DNA from: Alphaproteobacteria bacterium
GTDB taxonomy: Bacteria > Pseudomonadota > Alphaproteobacteria > Micropepsales > Micropepsaceae
Reading direction: 5' to 3'
DNA: 64,000 bases
Assembly (NCBI GenBank): GCA_028871795.1
Contig: JAGWMG010000002.1
Span: 1-64,000, forward strand
The notes under the pieces were generated by a model, which was given only the letters and a program-made list of their open reading frames with translations, searched no databases and was not told where the DNA came from. This document shows positions 7,919-59,132 of the stretch, in pieces. Position 1 is the first letter of the stretch, and each line of letters starts with the position of its first letter. A program made the translations under genes and the position numbers.

Positions 7919-9076
7919 ATGACCGGTAATCCGCCGGCCGTGCGCCCCGCACGGCCTTTTTTTTCGTCCGGACCTTGCGCCAAGCGGCCGGGCTGGACTC
8001 CCGAAGTCCTCAACGCCGCGCTCCTCGGCCGTTCGCACCGCTCCAAACCCGGCAAGGCGCGGCTGAAGGAAGCCATCGACCGCACCAAAGCGCTGCTCGG
8101 CATTCCGTCCGATTACCGCGTCGGCATCGTGCCGGCCTCCGACACCGGCGCCATGGAAATGGCGATGTGGTCGATGCTGGGGCCGAAGACCGTCGATTGC
8201 TTCGCCTGGGAAAGCTTCGGCGAAGACTGGGTCACCGACACCATCAAGCAGCTCGATCTGCGCGACAGCCGCATCTTCAAGGCGCCCTACGGCGAATTGC
8301 CGAACCTCAAGGACGCCAATCCCGGACACGACGTCGTGTTCCTGTGGAACGGCACGACCTCGGGCGTGCGGGTGCCGAACGGCGACTGGATCAGCGACGC
8401 GCGCGAAGGCATCACGATCTGCGACGCCACCTCGGCGGTCTTCGCCATGGACATCCCGTGGAAGAAACTCGATGTCGCGACCTTCTCCTGGCAGAAAGTG
8501 CTGGGCGGCGAAGCCGCGCACGGCATGTTGATCCTCTCCCCGCGTGCCGTCGCGCGGCTCGAAGCCCACACGCCCCCTTGGCCGATGCCGAAGATCTTCC
8601 GCCTGACCAAGGCCGGCAAGCTGGCGCAAGGCATCTTCGAAGGCGAGACCATCAACACGCCGTCGATGCTGGCGCTGGAGGATTATCTCGACGCGCTGAA
8701 ATGGGCGGAAGAGATCGGCGGCCTGCCGGCGTTGATGGCGCGCTCCGACGCCAACCTCAACGTGCTGGCGCGCTGGGTGAAGGAATGCGGCTGGGCCGAT
8801 TTCCTCGCCAAGGACGCGGCCAACCGCTCCAACACCAGCGCGTGCCTCAAGATCGTCGATCCCTGGTTCGCGGCCCTGCCGCTCGACGCGCAGGCCGGCG
8901 CGGCGAAGAAAATCGCCTCGACGCTGGATAAGGAAGGTGTCGCGTTCGACATTGCGGCCTACCGCGCGGCGCCTCCCGGCCTGCGCATCTGGTGCGGCGC
9001 CACCGTGGAGCGCGCCGATCTCGAAGCGCTGACGCCCTGGCTCGATTGGGCCTGGGCGAAGGTGAAAGCGAGCTAG
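7919..9076 (+). CDS. serC: Phosphoserine aminotransferase
   Basis: 385 residues. It converts 3-phosphohydroxypyruvate and glutamate to phosphoserine in serine synthesis, as a cytosolic PLP enzyme. The N-terminus [18 protein letters not shown] and [10 protein letters not shown] are typical of the alphaproteobacterial SerC type. [14 protein letters not shown] contains the PLP lysine, [14 protein letters not shown] binds cofactor, and [14 protein letters not shown] holds the aspartate that contacts the pyridine. The start at ATG 7919 agrees with family N-termini. That start places a strong terminator-like hairpin within codons 6-15. serA follows after two bases, so the two are one operon. Confidence 0.95.
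7936..7964 (+). terminator. Intrinsic-terminator-like hairpin inside the first codons of serC (attenuator candidate)
   Basis: GGCCGTGCG (7936-7944) pairs perfectly with CGCACGGCC (7948-7956) around a three-base loop, followed at once by eight T residues (7957-7964). This is as good an intrinsic terminator as any in the window, yet it is translated as part of SerC ([11 protein letters not shown]). It fits attenuation of serC-serA, with the upstream hairpins or ribosome progress deciding the outcome. Confidence 0.7.
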
Positions 9077-11383: not shown

Positions 11384-12181
11384 TTACCGCCCCTTGTACT
11401 GCGGCTCGCGCTTCTCGAAGAAGGCCGCCAGCGCCTCGGCGTGATCCTCGCTGACATGCGCGCGCGCCTGGAACGCCGCCGATCTGTCCATGATGGTTTC
11501 GAGGTTGGCCCCCACGGCCTCGCGCATCAGCTTCTTGGTCATGCGCAGGACGCCCGGCGGCTGCCGGCAGATCTCCCGGGCGAGGCCGTGCGCTTCCTCC
11601 ATCAGCAGCTCGGGCGGCACCAGCCTGGAGACCAGACCCCATTGCAGCGCGGTGGCCGCGTCGATCGTCTCGCCGGTGAAGAACAACTCGGACGCGCGCG
11701 CCTGTCCGATGATGCGCGGCAAAATCCAGGCGCCGCCGTCGCCGGGCACCAGCCCGATCTTAAGGAAGGTGGCGCCGAAGACCGCAAACTTGGAAGCGAT
11801 GCGGATGTCCGCCAGGCAGGCGACGTCGTTGCCGAGTCCGATGGCCGCGCCGTTGATCGCGGCGATCAGCGGCACTTCCAGGTTCCACAGGCTGCGCACG
11901 ATCTTGTGGATGTTGGTCTTGTAGCCTTCCTCGATCTGCTGCGGCGTGCCGGCGAAGACGCCGCTCTTCTCCCGCATCGCCTTGAGGTTGCCGCCCGCCG
12001 AGAAGGCGCTGCCCGCGCCGGTGAGGATGGCGCAGCGCACCTCGCGGTCGGCGTTGATCCGCGCCGCGGCGGCTTCGAACAGCGCGCCGTCGCCCTCCTC
12101 GCCCAAAATGTTGCGGCTCTCGGGCCGGTTGATGGTGAGCGTGGCGACGAAACCGTGTTTCTCGAAAAGCAGCGCTGACAT
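11384..12181 (-). CDS. Enoyl-CoA hydratase/isomerase (crotonase) family protein
   Basis: 265 residues of a single crotonase domain. The two oxyanion-hole segments are visible, GSAFSAGGNLKAM and NGAAIGLGNDVACLADIRIA, followed by GLVPGDGGAWILPRIIG. A glutamate is missing from the usual first catalytic position, but GDGGAW retains the second acidic position, as in many hydratases and isomerases that are not the main beta-oxidation enzyme. The C-terminal helix ends FEKREPQYKGR, which closes the active site in the family. It probably acts in CoA-ester degradation. It is monocistronic, with a large non-coding stretch upstream. Confidence 0.88.
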   Translation of the reverse strand: MSALLFEKHGFVATLTINRPESRNILGEEGDGALFEAAAARINADREVRCAILTGAGSAFSAGGNLKAMREKSGVFAGTPQQIEEGYKTNIHKIVRSLWNLEVPLIAAINGAAIGLGNDVACLADIRIASKFAVFGATFLKIGLVPGDGGAWILPRIIGQARASELFFTGETIDAATALQWGLVSRLVPPELLMEEAHGLAREICRQPPGVLRMTKKLMREAVGANLETIMDRSAAFQARAHVSEDHAEALAAFFEKREPQYKGR

Positions 12182-12700
12182 GGGTTCCTGCTGGGTGAGC
12201 CGTGGCGGCGCACTCTAGAGCACGATGTCCCCGAACAGAACCACGCTCCTTCGGCGCGACAAGCCGAAGGCGGGCTTCCCCGGAGCGCCGTTTCAGGCAA
12301 CCCGGCGAACCCGCCTTCGGCGCGAAGCTACGGCAGGCCAGTGGTCCCCGTTTTTCAGGCGGAATCCCCAAGCACCTTCGCTTCTCCGCGGACCGCGCGA
12401 AGCAGGCGTTATTGCGATCCGCCGCCACTTGGGCGGCACCCTCGCCGGCTTGCTCCGTTGGGATGCGCACGAGTTCGCACCCAGGCCCTGTATGCTCGCG
12501 TCAGCTTCGGCTCGGGACCGGCCCGCGCCTGCCATGGCGTCTCCCTGCAACAACTCGACGGGCATCCGCGCCGGGATGCCACGCGGGAGAGATGGGAACG
12601 GAAAACGAACGTTCAAGGCGGGGGCGCGAGATTTAATGTTCGCGAATGCGAGGCGGTATCGTCTATAATATCATCTGTACACGGATTGATTTGCGGGGGT

Positions 12701-12730
12701 CCGCTTTGCGCCGATTTTGTTGAAAAACTC
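12701..12730 (-). mobile_element. Possible solo end of an IS5/IS1182-type insertion sequence
   Basis: Read on the minus strand the segment is GAGTTTTTCAACAAAATCGG followed by CGCAAAGCGG. A GAGTTTTTCAACA-x-x-x-TC opening followed by x-AAAGCGG is frequent just inside or beside the ends of several alphaproteobacterial IS families. No transposase or second end is present within the gap, so this would be a relic. Confidence 0.3.
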
Positions 12731-12738
12731 TTTGGGCG

Positions 12739-12789
12739 AGGCGCCGTCCGCCGAGTTGAGCCCCGCCCCATCTGGATGGGGCGGCGCCT
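12739..12789 (+). ncRNA. Nested hairpin in the FTCD upstream region
   Basis: The outer stem AGGCGCCG (12739-12746) pairs with CGGCGCCT (12782-12789). The inner stem GCCCCAT (12765-12771) pairs with ATGGGGC (12776-12782) around CTGG. Stem lengths are good, but no T-tract follows and I recognise no riboswitch. It could be a terminator-like or mRNA leader structure of the FTCD gene 112 bases downstream. Confidence 0.35.
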
Positions 12790-12900
12790 ATCCGGTAGTC
12801 TCCAGCGCTCCGGTACGCGTCAGGCCGCGCGGCCGCCAAGGCGCCGCATCCAAACCCGACACGTGCGATATTACTTGATCTCATCGAGTGCGAGGACGAC

Positions 12901-14748
12901 ATGAACCAACGCGTGGTCGAGTGCGTGCCCAATTTTTCCGAAGGCCGCGACCCGGCCAAGATACGCCAGATCACCGAGGCCGTAGAGTCGGTGCCGGGCG
13001 TGAGGCTGATGGATGTCGACCCCGGCGCGGATACCAACCGCACTGTGGTGACCTTCGTCGGCGATCCGGACGGCGTGGTCGAGGCCGCCTTCCGCGGGAT
13101 CGCCGTCGCGGCGAGACTGATCGACATGCGCACGCACAAGGGCGCGCACCCGCGCATGGGCGCTTGCGACGTGTGTCCTTTCATCCCGGTCGAAGGTGTG
13201 ACCATGGACGATTGCGCGAAGCTCGCGCGTCGCCTGGGCGAGCGCGTCGGCAGGGAACTGGAGGTCCCGGTTTACCTCTACGAACACGCCGCCAGCCGTC
13301 CGGAGCGCGAAAACCTGGCGGTCGTGCGCCAGGGCGAGTACGAAGGCCTCGAAAAAAAATTGCAGGATCCCGCGTGGAAGCCCGACTTCGGCCCGGCCCG
13401 CTTCAATCCGGGTTTCGGGGCGTTGATCGCCGGCGCGCGCGAATTTCTGATCGCCTACAACATCAACCTCAACAGCACGGATAAGTCCCATGCGTCCGAC
13501 ATCGCCCTCGAGTTAAGGCAGAGCGGCCGCGTGGCGCGGCGCGGGCAGAAGAACGCCTATTACTCCAGCGGGCGGAAACTGCGTTATGCCGAGGGCTGTT
13601 TTCCCTGCGGCAACTGCGATTTCGACGGCAAAACCTTCGAGGACACGGAGCGGCACTGCCGGGAAGCCCACGGCTATCCGTTGCGCGACCTGCTCGCCGC
13701 GAATGACATCGACGCCGCCAAAGGCGTGGCCGGCCGGAAAGTCTACCGCGCGGGGATGTTCAAGGCCTGCAAGTCCATCGGCTGGTATGTGGAGGCGTAC
13801 AAGCGCGCCCAGATTTCGATCAACCTGACCGACTGGCGCCAGACCTCGCCGCGCGACGTGCTGGAGGCCGCGCGCAAACTGGCGGCGGCGCGCGGCCTGG
13901 TCGTGACCGGCAGCGAAATCGTGGGCGTGGTTCCGTTCGAGGCGCTGTTCGAGGCGGGACGCGCCTATCTGGAGGCCCAGGGCAAATGCGCCTTCGTGCC
14001 GGTCGGTGACGTGCTGCAGGCGGCGGTGTTCAGCTTGGGCCTGACCGACGTGGCCCCGTTCGAGATAGCCAAGAAAGTCATCGGCATGCCCAAGACCTAT
14101 CCCGGCGGCCTGGCGGACATGGCCTGCCGCGATTTTGTGGACGAGGTCAGTCGCGCAACGCCCGCCCCGGGCGGCGGGTCCATCGCGGCCCTGGCCGGAA
14201 GTTTGGGCGCGGCGCTCGCCTCGATGGTCGCCAATCTGACGCAAGGCAAAGCCGCCGGCGAAGCGGCCGAGCAGGAGCTTCTTGCGGTGGCGGAAAAGGC
14301 GCAGCGCATCAAGGACGCACTGCTGCTGGCGGTGGACGAAGATACGTCCGCCTTCAATGCCTACATGGAGGCGCGCCGGCTCCCCGCAGGCAGCGCCGAA
14401 GAGAAAGCTCTGCGGGCCGCGAAAATGCAGGAGGGCCTCAAGCTCGCGATCGAAGTGCCGTTGCGCACCGCGCGGCTGTCCTATGAAGCCATGGAAATCG
14501 CGGCGGCGGCCATGCGGCACGGCAATCCAAACTCCATCACCGACGCCATGGTGGGTTTCACCATCGCATTTGCAGGAGTGCGCGGCGGCATCTGGAACGT
14601 CTTTATCAATTTCAAAGGCATCACCGATGCCGCTTACGTGGCCGAGATGCGTCCCGCCTGCGACAAACTGCTGGAGCATGCCGACGCCCTTCTGGCGAGC
14701 GCGACCGGCGACGGAAGCGCGCGCCTCGAAGCGATGATGAGAAGCTAA
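12901..14748 (+). CDS. ftcD: Bifunctional glutamate formimidoyltransferase / formimidoyl-THF cyclodeaminase with C2H2-like insert
   Basis: 615 residues. The N-terminal half transfers the formimino group from formiminoglutamate (histidine degradation) to tetrahydrofolate. The C-terminal half deaminates it cyclically to methenyl-THF. Formiminotransferase blocks are VECVPNFSEGRDPAKI, GDPDGVVEAAFRG, MRTHKGAHPRMGACDVCPF and ITDAMVG-type helices; the cyclodeaminase domain begins near residue 400 (DFVDEVSRATPAPGGGSIAA). Between the formiminotransferase subdomains, residues 231-258 form EGCFPCGNCDFDGKTF then EDTERHCREAHG, a C-x2-C-x12-H-x4-H pattern. No hut genes are adjacent. The ATG has GAGGAC upstream. 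Confidence 0.88.
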   Translation: MNQRVVECVPNFSEGRDPAKIRQITEAVESVPGVRLMDVDPGADTNRTVVTFVGDPDGVVEAAFRGIAVAARLIDMRTHKGAHPRMGACDVCPFIPVEGVTMDDCAKLARRLGERVGRELEVPVYLYEHAASRPERENLAVVRQGEYEGLEKKLQDPAWKPDFGPARFNPGFGALIAGAREFLIAYNINLNSTDKSHASDIALELRQSGRVARRGQKNAYYSSGRKLRYAEGCFPCGNCDFDGKTFEDTERHCREAHGYPLRDLLAANDIDAAKGVAGRKVYRAGMFKACKSIGWYVEAYKRAQISINLTDWRQTSPRDVLEAARKLAAARGLVVTGSEIVGVVPFEALFEAGRAYLEAQGKCAFVPVGDVLQAAVFSLGLTDVAPFEIAKKVIGMPKTYPGGLADMACRDFVDEVSRATPAPGGGSIAALAGSLGAALASMVANLTQGKAAGEAAEQELLAVAEKAQRIKDALLLAVDEDTSAFNAYMEARRLPAGSAEEKALRAAKMQEGLKLAIEVPLRTARLSYEAMEIAAAAMRHGNPNSITDAMVGFTIAFAGVRGGIWNVFINFKGITDAAYVAEMRPACDKLLEHADALLASATGDGSARLEAMMRS

Positions 14749-52641: not shown

Positions 52642-52706
52642 TGGTGCCCCTGGCCGGACTTGAACCAGCACGCCCGTGAAGGCAACAGATTTTGAGTCTG
52701 CCGCGT
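52642..52706 (-). repeat. 3' fragment of tRNA-Leu(CAA): attachment-site remnant (left end of integrated element)
   Basis: The minus strand reads as the 3' 65 bases of a class II tRNA-Leu: end of the D-arm (ACGCGG), anticodon stem-loop with CTCAAAA (anticodon CAA), long variable arm, T-arm GGTTCAAGTCC, acceptor 3' strand CAGGGGC, discriminator A and CCA. The 5' part is missing: from 52707 the sequence no longer matches a tRNA. A truncated 3' tRNA end is the usual leftover of tyrosine-integrase insertion. Its orientation puts the element to the right. Confidence 0.85.
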
Positions 52707-53248: not shown

Positions 53249-55951
53249 ATGAACATCGCCGAGATAGAATCTGAACTACAGGCGCTTGCTGACGCACCGT
53301 TCGATCCGGCTACGTTTGTCTTTCGGTTTCTCGAAATTTACGACGCACCAAAGTCAACCCTCACGAAGCTAAAGCAGGGCACCGCGAACCACGCCAGTGA
53401 ACCTGGAGACTTGCTTTGGAAAAACAACCTGTTCTTCCGGGTGGCGCCGTCCGGCAAAACTGCTGAAACCGTCGATGCGATGCTGATCGATCCGCTTGTT
53501 AAGCGGCACAAGCCTCGATTCATAATGGCTGTTGATGGGAATGAGGTTTACGTCCGCGATCTCAAAGTCGATCAAACGGTCGATACCAGTTTTAAGAAAC
53601 TGAATGATGCCTTCCTATTTTTTCTACCGCTCGCGGGTATCGAACGCTATGACGCGGTTACCGAAAATGAAGCGGACATCAAAGCTACCGCGCGCGTCGC
53701 AAAGTTATACGACGCAATCTTGCAAGCCAATCCGGATTGGATTGATCGTGATCATACTCACGAGCTGAATCTTTTCATGACACGCATGCTCTTCTGTTTC
53801 TTCGCTGAAAGCACATCAATTTTCGAAAAGCACATTTTCACGAATACCGTCATAAATCGCACCGATGAGGATGGGTCAAACGCGCACGCCGTGCTTTCGG
53901 TGATATTTCGCGCGATGAACACGCCAAAGACGGAGCGGTCCGAATTGCCGGCATTCGCTCGCAATTTCGAATATGTGAACGGTGGGTTGTTCAGGGATGA
54001 CACGTCAGTCCCTCTATTTAACAAGCGAGCGCTCCGTCTGTTGAAAGAATGTGGCGAACTCGATTGGAAGGCCATCAATCCCGACATTTTTGGCTCCATG
54101 ATTCAGGCCGTTGCGCAACCAGGTCTGCGCGAAGATATGGGTCTGCATTACACGTCCATTCCGAACATTATGAAGGCGTTGCAGCCTCTCTTCCTGCTAT
54201 CGCTCGAAGAGGATTTTGAAGCCGCACGGAATAGCGAATTAAAGCTGAAAAAGCTTCTGCAACGAATCTACAATATCCGCGTGTTCGACCCGGCGTGTGG
54301 CTCCGGCAATTTCCTAATCATCGCCTACAAGGAGCTGCGCAAGTTGGAGATGCGTATTTTCGAGCGCCAAAAGCAGATCGCAAAGCAATGGTCGCTGGCT
54401 ATGACGGGTCTCCATTTGAATCAGTTCTTCGGTATCGAGCTTACAGACTTTGCCGCTGAGACGGCCAAGCTATCGCTCTGGATTGCCGAGTATCAAATGA
54501 ACGAGCAGTTCAAGGCGATATTCGGCTCCTCCCCTCCTTCTCTACCGCTACGCGATAGCGGCAATATCCTTCAAGAAAATGCGGCGCGCCTGCCTTGGGA
54601 CAGCGTTTGCCCGCCGAGTGAAGGAGCCGAAATATATATTGTCGGCAATCCGCCTTTTGAAGGCGCGCGGGGGCAATCGGAATCGCAAAAGGCCGACATA
54701 AACTTCGCTCTCGGCTCCGCTTACGACGGGGTAAATAGCCTCGACTACGTCTGTATCTGGTTCCATCTCGCGGGCAAGTACATAAAACAATTCCCCGCAC
54801 AAGCAGCATTCGTCGCCACGAGTTCTATCTGCCAGGGGCAATCTGTATCGTTGTTTTGGTCGAAGATGGTTTCACAGTCCGTCGAAATCGGCTTTGCCCA
54901 TAGTCCATTCAAGTGGCGCAATAACGCGACGCACAATGCGGCTGTAAATTGCGTTATCGTTGGTATCAGAAGACGGTCGGCTGCCAAGAAGATCATTTTC
55001 GACGAAGCTTCGTCGAAAGTGGTCGCCAATATATCTCCTTATCTCACTGACAATGATGACGTTGTCGTCGAGAAACGCTTTCAGCCTCCGGTCGGCTTGC
55101 CCGCATTGGTGATGGGCAATCAAGCAATCGACGGCGGTCACCTGATATTGTCCAAGCCCGAAATGGAAAAAATCGTATCGAACCATCCATCTGCGTCGCG
55201 ATTTATTCGGCCAGTTTATGGGGCAAATGATTTTGTTCGTGGTGAGTCTCGCTTTTGCATTTGGGTGCACGAGCAAGATTACGCGACCGCAAAGCGGATT
55301 CCGGAATTCGCAGCGAGGTTCGATAAAGTCAGAGAATATCGTGAAGTGAGCGGAGAGGTCGCGCGAAGCCTCATCAATATCCCCTACAGATTTAGATACG
55401 TACACGAAGCGAAGGAATGCTTGTTGGTTGTGCCGCGGACCACGACCGAACGAAGAGAGTATATCGCGTGCGGTGTGCTGGACAAGAATGCAATAGTTAC
55501 CGATGCAGTGCAGGTCATCTACGATCCGCAGATGTACTTGTTTGGCATACTGTCCTCGAAGGTTCACATCGTGTGGGTCAAGGCTGTGGCAGGTAAGTTC
55601 AAAACAGATCCCAGATATTCCAACACGCTTGTCTACAATACGTTTCCGCTACCGACTCTTTCCGACGAGCAAAGGAACGTGCTCGAAGAACATGCATTTG
55701 AAATTTTGAGAGTACGCGAGTCGTTTCCCGGAAAGACCCTTGGCTGGTTATATGACCCAGATACAATGCCTGATGATCTTCTAAAAGCGCACCACGACCT
55801 CGACGACACTTTGGAGCGTATTTACATCGGTCGCCCATTCAAAAATGACACAGAGCGCCTAGAACATCTCTTCAAGTTATATGCCGCAAAAAGAAAAAAG
55901 GACGGCAGTGCAAGAGTTGCTAGAGTGGCCGGGCGAAAGGAGAGCGCGTGA
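53249..55951 (+). CDS. MmeI-like class I SAM-dependent DNA methyltransferase
   Basis: 900 residues. The catalytic domain has motif I VFDPACGSGNFLIIAYKELR (Asp347 to Phe355) and motif IV IVGNPPFEGARG (Asn467-Pro-Pro-Phe470), so it should methylate adenine N6 in DNA. The order of regions (N-terminal domain 1-150, helical 150-330, methylase 330-620, target-recognition-like 630-800, C-terminal helices) is that of the MmeI family of single-chain type IIL/IIG enzymes. I see no convincing PD-(D/E)xK nuclease site in the N-terminal region (MAVDGNEVYVRDLKV is the closest), so cutting is probably done by a partner. The stop overlaps the helicase start by one base. Codon use is AT-richer than the chromosome. 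Confidence 0.85.
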   Translation: MNIAEIESELQALADAPFDPATFVFRFLEIYDAPKSTLTKLKQGTANHASEPGDLLWKNNLFFRVAPSGKTAETVDAMLIDPLVKRHKPRFIMAVDGNEVYVRDLKVDQTVDTSFKKLNDAFLFFLPLAGIERYDAVTENEADIKATARVAKLYDAILQANPDWIDRDHTHELNLFMTRMLFCFFAESTSIFEKHIFTNTVINRTDEDGSNAHAVLSVIFRAMNTPKTERSELPAFARNFEYVNGGLFRDDTSVPLFNKRALRLLKECGELDWKAINPDIFGSMIQAVAQPGLREDMGLHYTSIPNIMKALQPLFLLSLEEDFEAARNSELKLKKLLQRIYNIRVFDPACGSGNFLIIAYKELRKLEMRIFERQKQIAKQWSLAMTGLHLNQFFGIELTDFAAETAKLSLWIAEYQMNEQFKAIFGSSPPSLPLRDSGNILQENAARLPWDSVCPPSEGAEIYIVGNPPFEGARGQSESQKADINFALGSAYDGVNSLDYVCIWFHLAGKYIKQFPAQAAFVATSSICQGQSVSLFWSKMVSQSVEIGFAHSPFKWRNNATHNAAVNCVIVGIRRRSAAKKIIFDEASSKVVANISPYLTDNDDVVVEKRFQPPVGLPALVMGNQAIDGGHLILSKPEMEKIVSNHPSASRFIRPVYGANDFVRGESRFCIWVHEQDYATAKRIPEFAARFDKVREYREVSGEVARSLINIPYRFRYVHEAKECLLVVPRTTTERREYIACGVLDKNAIVTDAVQVIYDPQMYLFGILSSKVHIVWVKAVAGKFKTDPRYSNTLVYNTFPLPTLSDEQRNVLEEHAFEILRVRESFPGKTLGWLYDPDTMPDDLLKAHHDLDDTLERIYIGRPFKNDTERLEHLFKLYAAKRKKDGSARVARVAGRKESA

Positions 55952-57930
55952 TGGCGGATTTCGTTACAGTTACCTACGGCCAAACTGGCGCAAGCCAATC
56001 GACGAACGAATATGGCATGCGTTCGATGCAAGCACGCGTATTTGATGCTCGCAATTCGCAATACCTGTTGGTGAAAGCGCCACCGGCTTCTGGCAAATCG
56101 CGCGCGCTGATGTTTATCGGACTCGATAAGTTGGAAAATCAGGGAATTGCTAAGGTAATAGTGGCTGTCCCAGAGCGATCAATTGGCTCTTCGTTCAAAT
56201 CCACAAAGCTGACCGACGGCGGATTCTTTCGGGATTGGCTTGTCGATCCAAAGTGGAATCTGACTGAGACTGCTGGAGCCTCGGGAAAAGTTGCAGCGCT
56301 CAAGCAGTTCATGACTTCCCAGGATGAGATTCTCGTTTGCACGCACGCGACGCTGCGTTTCGCATTTGAACAGCTCGGCGCTAGCGCGTTTTCGTCATGT
56401 CTCATCGCGATCGATGAGTTTCACCATGTTTCGTCCGACGAGAATAGCCGCTTGGGTGATGTCGTCCGGGCGCTCATGGAAGTGGACAAGGCTCATATCG
56501 TTGCAATGACTGGATCGTACTTCCGGGGAGACGCTGCGCCGGTATTGCGGCCAGAGGATGAAGCGCGATTCAATCGCGTCACCTATACCTACTACGAGCA
56601 GCTAGATGGGTACAAATATCTGAAGACATTAGGCATCGGCTACCATTTCTATCGCGGCCGATACATCGACGCCATCAATCAGATTTTGAATTCCGATCTT
56701 AAGACTATCGTACATATCCCGCATGTGCGGTCTGCCGAATCGACGTCCGACAAGTATGCTGAAGTGGATAAAATTCACGATCATCTTGGGGAAATGCTGG
56801 GTAAGGACGAAGCTACAGGTCTGTATCGGGTCCGACGCGCAGACGGCAAGGTACTGAAGGTCGCTGATCTCGTTGATGACGGCCCCGACCGCGAACGAGT
56901 GATGCAAACGCTTCGCAGAATCGAGAGCCGCGACGACGTAGACATCATTATTGCACTTGGTATGGCCAAAGAAGGGTTTGATTGGATTTGGTGCGAACAC
57001 GCACTAACAGTCGGCTATCGCGGCTCCTTAACCGAAGTTATTCAAATCATCGGTCGGGCAACGCGAGACGCCCCAGGCAAAAGCCATGCTCAATTTACAA
57101 ATCTGATCGCGGAGCCGGACGCAAGCGAAGAGCGCGTGACGGATGCGGTTAACAATATGCTTAAAGCAATCGCTTGTTCGCTGCTCATGGAGCAGGTGTT
57201 GGCTCCGAACTTCAAATTCAAAACGCGCGACGACGCTGATGAACTGGACGGGTCCGCAAAAGAAACGGACATCACCTATACGCACGGTGATAGCGTCATA
57301 GCAATTCGTGGCTTTGCAGAGCCGTCAACGGAGCGTACCAAGCAAATTCTTGAAAGCGATCTTAGCGATTTAACTGCGGCGATATTTCAAGACGAGTCTG
57401 TTTTGCGAGCAGCGATGAACCCGTCTGACTACGCGCCCGAAGTTGTGAACCAGGTCTTCATACCCAAAGTTATTGAGCATCGGTATCCCGACCTTACGCC
57501 ACAAGAGGTAGAGGAGATACGGCAGGCGGTTGTCGCAAACGGTGTGTTCAAGAGTCCTTCGGTAGTCGTCGAGCAACAGGGTGACACGAAATTTGTTCGA
57601 ATGGCTGAGCGCCTGATAAATATCGATGAACTCGATATGGACTTGATTGATTCGATAAATCCCTTCCAGAAGGCGTACGAAATTTTATCAAAGTCCGTTA
57701 CCTCCGAAGTTCTTCAAACCATTCATGCTGCCATCACTTCGGTTTCTGTCTCAATGACGGAGCAAGAAGCCGTTTCCAGTTGGCCACGCATCCAGGCGTT
57801 CAGAAAAGAGCGCGGCGTAGCTCCGAGTCTAGTGAGCCCGAATCCTTTGGAGCGGCGACTAGCCGAGGCGTTGGCTTGGCTTCAGGCCAAGAAACGTGAA
57901 CGGGGTAGAACTTCCGGCGGGGGGCAATAG
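55951..57930 (+). CDS. SF2 helicase/translocase of the defence operon
   Basis: 659 residues. Walker A is APPASGKS (43-50), Walker B with DEFHH is at 155-159 in SSCLIAIDEFHHVS, motif III is AMTGSYFRGD, and the C-terminal RecA lobe has AKEGFDWIWCEHALTVGYRG and motif VI IQIIGRATRDAPG. The last 250 residues are helical and unrecognised. It resembles the translocase subunits of restriction systems more than replication helicases. Start at ATG 55951, one-base overlap with the methylase stop, and two bases before the nuclease gene, so the three are a single translational unit. Confidence 0.85.
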   Translation: MADFVTVTYGQTGASQSTNEYGMRSMQARVFDARNSQYLLVKAPPASGKSRALMFIGLDKLENQGIAKVIVAVPERSIGSSFKSTKLTDGGFFRDWLVDPKWNLTETAGASGKVAALKQFMTSQDEILVCTHATLRFAFEQLGASAFSSCLIAIDEFHHVSSDENSRLGDVVRALMEVDKAHIVAMTGSYFRGDAAPVLRPEDEARFNRVTYTYYEQLDGYKYLKTLGIGYHFYRGRYIDAINQILNSDLKTIVHIPHVRSAESTSDKYAEVDKIHDHLGEMLGKDEATGLYRVRRADGKVLKVADLVDDGPDRERVMQTLRRIESRDDVDIIIALGMAKEGFDWIWCEHALTVGYRGSLTEVIQIIGRATRDAPGKSHAQFTNLIAEPDASEERVTDAVNNMLKAIACSLLMEQVLAPNFKFKTRDDADELDGSAKETDITYTHGDSVIAIRGFAEPSTERTKQILESDLSDLTAAIFQDESVLRAAMNPSDYAPEVVNQVFIPKVIEHRYPDLTPQEVEEIRQAVVANGVFKSPSVVVEQQGDTKFVRMAERLINIDELDMDLIDSINPFQKAYEILSKSVTSEVLQTIHAAITSVSVSMTEQEAVSSWPRIQAFRKERGVAPSLVSPNPLERRLAEALAWLQAKKRERGRTSGGGQ

Positions 57931-57932
57931 CT

Positions 57933-59132
57933 ATGCCACGCCTGACGCTGACGGACATTCTGTCTTTGGAAGACCATGATGGTCTTCTCGACGTTAAGCC
58001 TCTTGCGCCCGCTGCTGCGTCGGAGTCTTCTCGGATAGAGAATGACTTTGAGGAGCTGAATCTCTTTATCGACGAGCATGGCTTCGTGCCGGGTTCCGGA
58101 ACTGGCGGCAATAAACCGTCCATTAAGGAACGGACGCTGTCGATGCGCTTGAAAAGCTACCGCGAACGTCCAGACATTGCTCAGCGTCTGAAGTTTGTCG
58201 ATCGCCATAACCTTTTGGAGGGAATTGGGGACGTACCGCCACCGGAAAGTCTCGATGAGATATTGGACCTGGATGACGACCTACTGAATGCCCCGAGCGA
58301 GGAGATATTTTCGTTTCGGCATTCTCGGCCTAGCTCAGCGCGTCCAGATCGTGTTTCAGAACGGAAGCCTTGTAAGGACTTTGAGAAGTTCAAGCCGCTT
58401 TTTGATGCCTGCGTGGCGGACCTCGTTTCGGGGAAACGTAAGAGCCTCAAATTTGCCAACGAGCAGGAAGTCAACGCGGGTGAGTTTTTTATTCTCAATG
58501 GCGTCATGGTGTACGTTGCTGAGGTAAACGACCCGCATATCCGAAATGGAAAGCGGAACGCGAGACTTCGCCTCATTTTTGAAAATGGAACTGAGGGCGA
58601 GAACCTTTTGCGTTCTCTCGCTACCGAACTCTACAAGGATGCCAGCGGGCGGCGCATTTCTAGTCCCGAAGTGGGGCCTCTGTTTGATCCTGAGTCAAGT
58701 GTTGCCACCGTTGAAGCTTCGGCCGAACGCATTACTGGCTCGATCTATGTGGTTCGTAGTCTTTCCACTCATCCTGAAATTGCTCGCTTGGACGGGCATC
58801 TTTTCAAAGTCGGGTTCACCGCTGGAAAAGTAGAGGACCGTTTGCGTGGCGCTAAAGATGATCCGACGTTCTTATTGGCACCAGTTCATTTGGTAAGGAG
58901 TTACGACGCTATCAACATGAACACGACGAAGCTTGAAAACCTGCTGCACCGCTTTTTTGCAGATGCACGTCTTGACGTAGAAATAAAAGACCGATTTGGA
59001 AAACCGTTCCGGCCGCGCGAATGGTTTATTCTGCCATTGCCGGTCGTCGATAAGGCTATCAGTATGCTGCTTGATGGCAGCATACTAGGCTATCGTTATG
59101 ACGCCGCCGCTCAAAAGTTGGTCAAGTCCTGA
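57933..59132 (+). CDS. GIY-YIG (T5orf172-type) nuclease of the defence operon
   Basis: 399 residues. Residues 1-260 are unrecognised, with an acidic helical stretch (ESLDEILDLDDDLLNAPSEE). Residues about 268-385 form the GIY-YIG/T5orf172 domain: GSIYVVRSLSTHPEIARLDG, HLFKVGFTAGKVEDRLRGAK, DDPTFLLAPVHLVRSYDAIN, TTKLENLLHRFFADARLDVE and REWFILPLPVVDKAI. The GSIY...FKVGFT pair stands for GIY...YIG; catalytic candidates are the arginines of EDRLRG and Glu335 in KLENLLHRFF. It is the obvious nuclease partner of the methylase and helicase. ATG two bases after the helicase stop, with GGCGGGGGG upstream. Confidence 0.8.
   Translation: MPRLTLTDILSLEDHDGLLDVKPLAPAAASESSRIENDFEELNLFIDEHGFVPGSGTGGNKPSIKERTLSMRLKSYRERPDIAQRLKFVDRHNLLEGIGDVPPPESLDEILDLDDDLLNAPSEEIFSFRHSRPSSARPDRVSERKPCKDFEKFKPLFDACVADLVSGKRKSLKFANEQEVNAGEFFILNGVMVYVAEVNDPHIRNGKRNARLRLIFENGTEGENLLRSLATELYKDASGRRISSPEVGPLFDPESSVATVEASAERITGSIYVVRSLSTHPEIARLDGHLFKVGFTAGKVEDRLRGAKDDPTFLLAPVHLVRSYDAINMNTTKLENLLHRFFADARLDVEIKDRFGKPFRPREWFILPLPVVDKAISMLLDGSILGYRYDAAAQKLVKS

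What the first reader, a model, noticed from the sequence alone, without database searches (positions are those of the whole stretch)
53249..59132. Tight methylase-helicase-GIY-YIG nuclease operon: candidate undescribed defence system
Three genes with one-base overlap and two-base spacing encode an MmeI-like adenine DNA methylase without an obvious own nuclease site, a SF2 helicase and a 399-residue protein with a C-terminal T5orf172/GIY-YIG nuclease. Known type I systems use HsdR (nuclease and translocase in one chain), and MmeI enzymes are single-chain. Here methylation/recognition, translocation and cutting appear split over three proteins, the nuclease being GIY-YIG rather than PD-(D/E)xK. 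The unit is AT-richer than the chromosome and sits in a tRNA-integrated mobile element, the classic location for anti-phage cargo. DISARM, BREX and Druantia do not have this set.
Basis: partly seen in the sequence, partly recalled or inferred. Interest (0 to 1): 0.75.

Follow-up and report, generated by a model that had tools for sequence, protein, structure and literature searches.

The report
DnmA-YeeB-YeeC type split restriction-modification operon
Three neighbouring genes on a mobile DNA element encode a DNA-marking enzyme, a DNA motor and a DNA-cutting enzyme that very probably work together to mark the cell's own DNA and attack unmarked invaders; the gene set is widespread and was already described in Bacillus subtilis, so it is a new example of a known but poorly understood kind.

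Summary
In detail: an MmeI-type adenine methylase (M), an SF2 helicase (H) and a T5orf172/GIY-YIG protein (G) are packed head to tail at 53249-59132, AT-rich, in a ~19.7-kb element that splits a tRNA-Leu gene. The trio is not undescribed: it is the architecture of B. subtilis dnmA(yeeA)-yeeB-yeeC, called a possible Type I-like R-M system since 2009 and a conserved, defence-associated cluster in 2023; Vibrio homologues are reported to affect sensitivity to some phages, the B. subtilis ones not. My additions: (1) M has the whole MmeI domain set, but E80 and K82 of the MmeI nuclease are R64 and A66; 0 of 65 relatives keep E or K there. (2) Among other MmeI-family loci, 18 of 18 methylases without the motif have H downstream; none of 8 with it does (6 with enough sequence to tell). 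(3) In E. coli, four target-recognition types (38-51% identical) share H and G at least 95.7% identical, so sequence choice lies in M. (4) About half of relatives carry extra sequence, often genes, between M and H, some of known defence families. Best reading: a split, ATP-dependent restriction-modification system. New member of a known kind; mechanism open.

The parts
53249..55951 (+). M: MmeI-type N6-adenine DNA methylase; nuclease-dead N domain (1-159), helical spacer (171-248), MTase (324-584), target recognition domain (602-804), C domain (805-879)
   Evidence: PADLOC REase_MTase_IIG, 931 bits; PDB 5hr4 MmeI, E 1e-164
55948..57930 (+). H: SF2 helicase/translocase (YeeB-type); Walker A PPASGKS 45-51, DEFH 156-159, QIIGRATRD 366-374; a conserved C-terminal part of its own
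   Evidence: Foldseek best hit HsdR of EcoR124I, weak
57933..59132 (+). G: YeeC-type protein; helical N part, SH3/tudor-like middle (about 168-246), C-terminal T5orf172/GIY-YIG nuclease (270-378) with Y272, K292, G294, R303, E335 invariant in 53 relatives
52642..52706 (-). 3' part of the split native tRNA-Leu(CAA); 17-bp core of the left attachment site at 52690-52706. Its partner core lies at 72398-72414, outside the window (L087 8398-8414)

Best explanation
A DnmA-YeeB-YeeC type operon acting as a split, ATP-dependent restriction-modification system. M binds an asymmetric site through its target recognition domain and methylates one adenine, marking host DNA (this chemistry is published for DnmA of B. 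subtilis; inferred here). Its N-terminal domain has lost the nuclease site but is still recognisable as the MmeI N domain and, I infer, serves as the dock for H and G. On an unmethylated site M recruits H, which translocates DNA with ATP (inferred), and G, whose GIY-YIG domain cuts or nicks the DNA (inferred). Because only one strand of an asymmetric site can carry the mark, replication leaves one daughter site bare; a motor that must meet a second site or a stalled partner, as in Type III and ISP enzymes (recalled), would keep the host safe and would explain why a helicase belongs to the set.
For: Conserved order M-H-G: 75 of 80 with M, 78 of 80 with G; in most loci G overlaps H by 8 nt. Split of the MmeI family: 18 of 18 complete methylases without D..ExK have H downstream on the same strand (9 within 55 nt, 7 at 0.27-1.7 kb, 2 at about 7 kb; G seen in 16, the other 2 cut by the range fetched); 0 of 8 with the motif do (6 of these with over 7 kb read downstream, L147 with 1.0 kb, L129 with 0.1 kb). 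Co-divergence over 65 trios: rank correlation of pairwise identities H-G 0.90, H-MTase 0.82, H-N domain 0.87, but H-TRD 0.55. TRD replacement with H and G nearly unchanged: L065/L068 H 97%, G 94%, MTase 93%, N 99%, TRD 51%; eight E. coli loci hold four TRD types at 38-51% identity with H at least 95.9%, G at least 95.7%, N domain at least 91%. If H or G read sequence on their own, such swaps would break self-protection. Catalytic residues or motifs of all three are present in the window copy apart from the lost nuclease of M. Patchy presence: 91 of 5,426 E. coli genomes by DNA match to one H gene; 230 plasmid records with a G match and 263 with an H match of 72,556. Published: DnmA makes m6A at GACGAG; Vibrio deletions raise sensitivity to some phages (passages, PMC7261158, PMC9973331).
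Against: In B. subtilis, loss of dnmA did not change plasmid uptake, deletions did not change three phages, and the DnmA site is not depleted in phage genomes (PMC9973331, PMC7261158); the authors call it a relic there. In Vibrio some phage subclades were unaffected. No contact, ATPase, translocation or cleavage was tested here. Between the E. coli types the MTase domain also differs (67-86% identical), so the exchanged stretch is wider than the TRD. H's match to HsdR is weak and shared with many SF2 helicases. The G model has pTM 0.40 and the H model pTM 0.52. The window proteins were not aligned with the B. subtilis proteins themselves.
Confidence: 0.7

Rival explanations
1. Relic: M works as an orphan regulatory methylase, H and G are inert passengers, as proposed for B. 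subtilis.
For: PMC9973331 and PMC7261158 (passages): no restriction phenotype in B. subtilis.
Against: Among diverse relatives H keeps 149 invariant columns (41 sequences) and G 22 (53 sequences), the motor and nuclease motifs included, and both co-diverge with M. TRD types turn over while H and G stay almost fixed, which fits selection on all three. Vibrio homologues are reported to protect against some phages.
Confidence: 0.12
2. Methylation-guided defence without direct cutting at the site: like BREX or DISARM it senses unmethylated DNA and blocks replication, with G acting only on branched or stalled DNA (its nuclease domain aligns with Slx1).
For: The GIY-YIG region aligned with Slx1 (6sei_C, Z 5.9, 104 residues, model residues 260-399); M scores weakly against DISARM DrmMI (114 bits).
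Against: Z 5.9 lies within the range that the tool calls common for models without a clear match, and any GIY-YIG fold would match Slx1. No BREX or DISARM core protein was found among the nine element genes scanned with PADLOC apart from the weak M hits; the other genes of the element were not scanned with it.
Confidence: 0.13
3. Mobile-element competition or stabilisation module: its main role is to exclude rival plasmids and elements rather than phages.
For: The operon sits on an element with relaxase, NikA/MobC and VirD4-type genes; relatives are on many plasmids, 92 of the 230 records with a G match predicted conjugative.
Against: Does not exclude restriction; all 92 places in E. coli are chromosomal.
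Confidence: 0.05

Closest known systems
DnmA-YeeB-YeeC cluster of Bacillus subtilis (PMC7261158, PMC9973331) and its Vibrio crassostreae homologues (Piel et al. 2021, seen only as cited)
   Same: MmeI-like methylase without nuclease motif, then SF2 helicase, then T5orf172 protein, same order; low-G+C, mobile-looking island
   Different: PMC9973331 says that B. [quoted passage not shown]
MmeI, Type IIL restriction-modification enzyme (PDB 5hr4)
   Same: All five MmeI domains; aligned over residues 53-879 of M
   Different: E80 and K82 replaced by R64 and A66; nuclease and motor supplied by two other proteins
Type I restriction-modification (HsdRMS)
   Same: Swappable specificity with a constant motor; Foldseek places HsdR first for H, weakly
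   Different: Specificity and methylase in one chain; motor and nuclease on separate chains; GIY-YIG nuclease instead of the HsdR nuclease
DISARM and BREX
   Same: Methylase plus helicase logic; weak M similarity to DrmMI and PglX
   Different: No DUF1998 protein, PLD nuclease, PglZ or BrxC found among the element genes scanned

Membership tests
DnmA-YeeB-YeeC cluster | MmeI-like methylase lacking the nuclease motif | tested here: met
DnmA-YeeB-YeeC cluster | SF2 helicase gene directly downstream, same strand | tested here: met
DnmA-YeeB-YeeC cluster | T5orf172/GIY-YIG gene second downstream | tested here: met
   B. subtilis among the control genomes also rings for MmeI_TRD and MUG113
DnmA-YeeB-YeeC cluster | Order conserved across distant bacteria | tested here: met
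   also a Bacillota plasmid
DnmA-YeeB-YeeC cluster | Direct sequence alignment with the B. subtilis proteins | not tested
DnmA-YeeB-YeeC cluster | m6A methylation of an asymmetric site | not testable with these tools
   needs methylome data
Type IIL (MmeI) | PD-(D/E)xK site in the N domain | tested here: not met
   E80 to R64, K82 to A66; 0 of 65
Type IIL (MmeI) | MmeI MTase, TRD and C domains | tested here: met
Type I R-M | Motor and nuclease in one HsdR chain | tested here: not met
   H's helicase match starts at residue 27 and it has no nuclease family match
DISARM | DrmA/DrmB/DrmC set | tested here: not met
   H and G have no Drm match at E 0.001; M only a partial DrmMI match (114 bits against 931 for REase_MTase_IIG)
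BREX | PglX above curated cut-off | tested here: not met
   22-23 bits against cut-offs of 400-900

The most novel reading that the evidence does not exclude
The family is its own type of ATP-dependent restriction-modification system: a nuclease-dead MmeI serves as interchangeable aiming and marking unit, its former nuclease domain having become the docking platform for a separate motor and a separate GIY-YIG nuclease, and the M-H junction is an acquisition site for further stand-alone defence genes.
Probability: 0.45. Interest if true: 0.65.

Novelty: new member of a known kind. Interest (0 to 1): 0.38.

Why it matters
The cluster is common (M with H downstream in 22 of 398 genomes sampled in the window's phylum, the window's own included), yet the papers seen give no worked-out mechanism and the best-studied member looks inactive. 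The E. coli copies with four different recognition domains on an almost constant motor and nuclease are a ready-made set in a tractable host to test whether it restricts, what it recognises and how a site marked on one strand is kept safe.

Tried and rejected
PADLOC, NCBIfam and Pfam as a source of a system name: only M is filed (REase_MTase_IIG), H weakly (PbeA, Cas3, ResIII, dnd_restrict_1), G not at all in PADLOC and NCBIfam. PDB sequence search: nothing for G at E up to 1; for H only DHX58 at about 1e-5. Foldseek on G: no match at E 0.001 or better; the listed rows cover mainly the SH3/tudor-like middle part, so nothing is claimed from absences. The H model has moderate confidence (pLDDT 71.8, pTM 0.52). 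Phage records: 3 of 50,697 have an H match, none over 80% of the query, so it is not typical cargo in that collection. A loose D..[ED]xK pattern is hit in 7 of 65 M proteins elsewhere in residues 41-120, not at the aligned columns; I treat these as chance.

Limits of the counts. M under 850, H under 600 and G under 370 aa were dropped. One search has four N-truncated M frames left out of the 18-versus-8 comparison (L128, L130, L138 with H and G; L144 with neither); of the 8 with the motif, L129 and L147 lie too near a contig end to exclude H. The 80 loci are the best 80 of at least 583 and lean to close relatives. Genes between M and H were called mechanically (frames of 90 aa or more).

Papers. 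Not held: Morgan 2009, Makarova 2011, Piel; what I say of them is as cited in PMC7261158 and PMC9973331, of which I saw passages. PMC12707154 (passages) mentions DnmA once, as an orphan methylase; PMC12839542 has none of the terms asked. That I found no formal system name rests on searches in that library only.
Full report
What is there. Three genes lie head to tail on the + strand: M 53249-55951 (900 aa), H 55948-57930 (660 aa), G 57933-59132 (399 aa). M matches all five MmeI domains of Pfam, H matches DEAD and ResIII, G ends in a T5orf172/MUG113 (GIY-YIG class) domain. PADLOC files M as a Type IIG enzyme with 931 bits and has nothing for G. The four 2-kb windows over the operon have G+C 0.51-0.57, the other 28 have 0.61-0.67.

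M is an MmeI without its nuclease. Aligned to MmeI of PDB 5hr4, D70 is kept as D54, but E80 is R64 and K82 is A66 (that these three are catalytic is recalled; PMC7261158 states a PD-ExK motif in MmeI's N-terminal domain). Among 65 M proteins of 850 aa or more, none has E at column 64 or K at column 66. The methylase motifs DPACGSGNF and GNPPF are present in the window protein (alignment).

The trio is a conserved unit. The best 80 relatives of H in one-genome-per-species contigs (of at least 583 found) carry titles from Proteobacteria, Bacteroidota, cyanobacteria, Verrucomicrobia, Planctomycetes, Chloroflexi and others (phyla assigned from the names by recall); 75 of 80 have M upstream and 78 of 80 have G downstream, on the same strand. 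Of the seven gaps in the table, five fall at contig ends; L012 and L051 have other genes in the 1.3 and 3.1 kb upstream of H and no M before the contig ends. The four plasmid records read add Niallia (Bacillota), Klebsiella, Bosea and Providencia.

The MmeI family falls into two kinds. In 398 genomes of the window's phylum, 51 have an MmeI_TRD match, 49 over the cut-off. I fetched the surroundings of all 30 places over 200 bits other than the window. Of 26 with a complete N domain, 18 lack the D..ExK motif and all 18 have H downstream on the same strand: 9 within 55 nt, 7 at 0.27-1.7 kb, and L120 and L131 at about 7 kb, where the range fetched ends before G; G is seen in the other 16. The 8 with the motif show no H or G; six of them have over 7 kb read downstream, L147 has 1.0 kb and L129 0.1 kb. 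Of 4 with a truncated M frame, 3 have H and G and 1 has neither.

Specificity sits in M. Over 65 complete trios the TRD has a median pairwise identity of 0.415, against 0.65 for the MTase domain, 0.71 for H and 0.53 for G; identities of H and G rise and fall together (rank correlation 0.90; H-MTase 0.82, H-N domain 0.87, H-TRD 0.55). Single cases are sharper: L065 and L068 agree at 97% in H, 94% in G, 93% in the MTase domain, 99% in the N domain and only 51% in the TRD. In E. coli, where 91 of 5,426 genomes match this H by DNA, the eight loci read hold four TRD types, 38-51% identical between types, with H at least 95.9%, G at least 95.7% and the N domain at least 91% identical. The exchanged stretch is wider than the TRD: identity falls from about residue 450 of M and recovers at about 780-810, so the MTase domain is 67-86% identical between types. 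If H or G chose their own sites, such swaps would leave the host unprotected; so M must aim them. The strong conservation of the nuclease-dead N domain suggests that it is the contact surface; this is inference.

H and G look active. 41 diverse H proteins keep PPASGKS, DEFHH and QIIGR.TRD without change; 53 diverse G proteins keep Y272, K292, G294, R303 and E335. The G model (pLDDT 83.8, pTM 0.40) shows a helical N part, an SH3/tudor-like middle and a C-terminal domain that aligns with the Slx1 nuclease (Z 5.9, 104 residues; modest). The H model's first Foldseek hits are HsdR of EcoR124I and MrfA (E 5e-9 and 9e-9, TM 0.30-0.36); that is weak and fits many SF2 motors.

It is already known. PMC7261158 (passages) and PMC9973331 (passages) describe B. 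subtilis DnmA (YeeA), YeeB and YeeC with this make-up, trace the observation to Morgan et al. 2009, and report conservation of the order and defence-rich neighbourhoods (1.8 against 0.56 defence-associated genes). DnmA methylates GACGAG. B. subtilis mutants showed no change in plasmid uptake or with three phages, and the authors call the cluster a relic there; they cite Piel et al. 2021 for raised sensitivity to some, not all, phage subclades upon deletion in Vibrio crassostreae. B. subtilis rings for MmeI_TRD and MUG113 among the control genomes, but I did not align the proteins directly.

Extra genes between M and H. In 39 of 75 loci M and H are within 55 nt; in 36 of 75 the gap exceeds 150 nt; the less biased sample gives 9 and 9 of 18. 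In 32 of the 36 there is a reading frame of 90 aa or more, in 28 the longest one on the operon's strand. Of 13 such proteins scanned with Pfam (10) or PADLOC (10), RhuM/PDC-S05 (L033), PDDEXK_4/PDC-S26 (L053), SoFic (L064) and DUF3800 (L055) were recognised, L047 had a marginal TmtA hit, and eight had no match. The window copy has no insert.

The element. The operon is at the left end of an element from 52690 to 72414, G+C 0.555. It cuts a tRNA-Leu(CAA) in two at a 17-bp core present at both ends; the joined flanks give an intact tRNA-Leu(CAA) by ARAGORN. The element carries its own intact tRNA-Leu(CAA) (70837-70923, minus) and, next to the right end, an integrase (70965-72284) recognised by its N-terminal SAM-like domain only. 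Other cargo: relaxase, NikA/MobC and VirD4-type coupling protein, a small GIY-YIG protein, a SIR2-like protein (weak), SRAP, a Y-family polymerase, and a DUF5131 protein with a neighbour that match PADLOC PDC-M30B and PDC-M30A.

Verdict. The best mechanism is a split, ATP-dependent restriction-modification system aimed by M. The two-site or collision step that would keep half-marked host DNA safe is my inference from the one-strand mark and the linked helicase, with Type III and ISP enzymes as recalled models.

Noticed in passing
52642-52706 and L087:6837-6923, 8398-8435 (window scale 70837-70923, 72398-72435): The element splits the native tRNA-Leu(CAA) at a 17-bp core and carries its own intact tRNA-Leu(CAA), 77% identical over 57 nt to the split one. 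It is the only intact CAA copy found in the held assembly (95.6% complete) by an 87-nt search (other intact Leu hits: TAG, CAG), so loss of the element might remove this tRNA unless excision restores the native gene.
   Followed up: partly
36 of 75 loci, between M and H; for example L021, L033, L043, L048, L053-L056, L064, L066, L081: The M-H junction often holds extra co-oriented genes, among them RhuM, PDDEXK_4, SoFic and DUF3800 families. A family of about 285 aa recurs there (L048, L054, L056, L066); L048 and L054 have no Pfam match and L054 no PADLOC match.
   Followed up: partly
L087:4695-6808 (window scale 68695-70808): DUF5131 gene followed by a gene matching PADLOC candidate families PDC-M30B and PDC-M30A: a second candidate defence pair on the same element.
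   Followed up: partly
L087:938-1975 (minus) and L087:435-941: SIR2-like protein (weak PADLOC match) beside a small protein with a GIY-YIG match just over the cut-off.
   Followed up: no
L087:2389-4380: SRAP (SOS-response peptidase family) gene next to a Y-family DNA polymerase gene on the mobile element, divergently oriented.
   Followed up: no
L086 (Providencia rettgeri plasmid) 11936-13141: In the place of G two genes are annotated, 95 aa (hypothetical) and 304 aa (GIY-YIG nuclease family protein).
   Followed up: no
G000 contig C21:63104-63322 (L162): A second MUG113-domain match in the same genome, in an open frame of 314 aa; its neighbours were not read.
   Followed up: no
   Followed up: no
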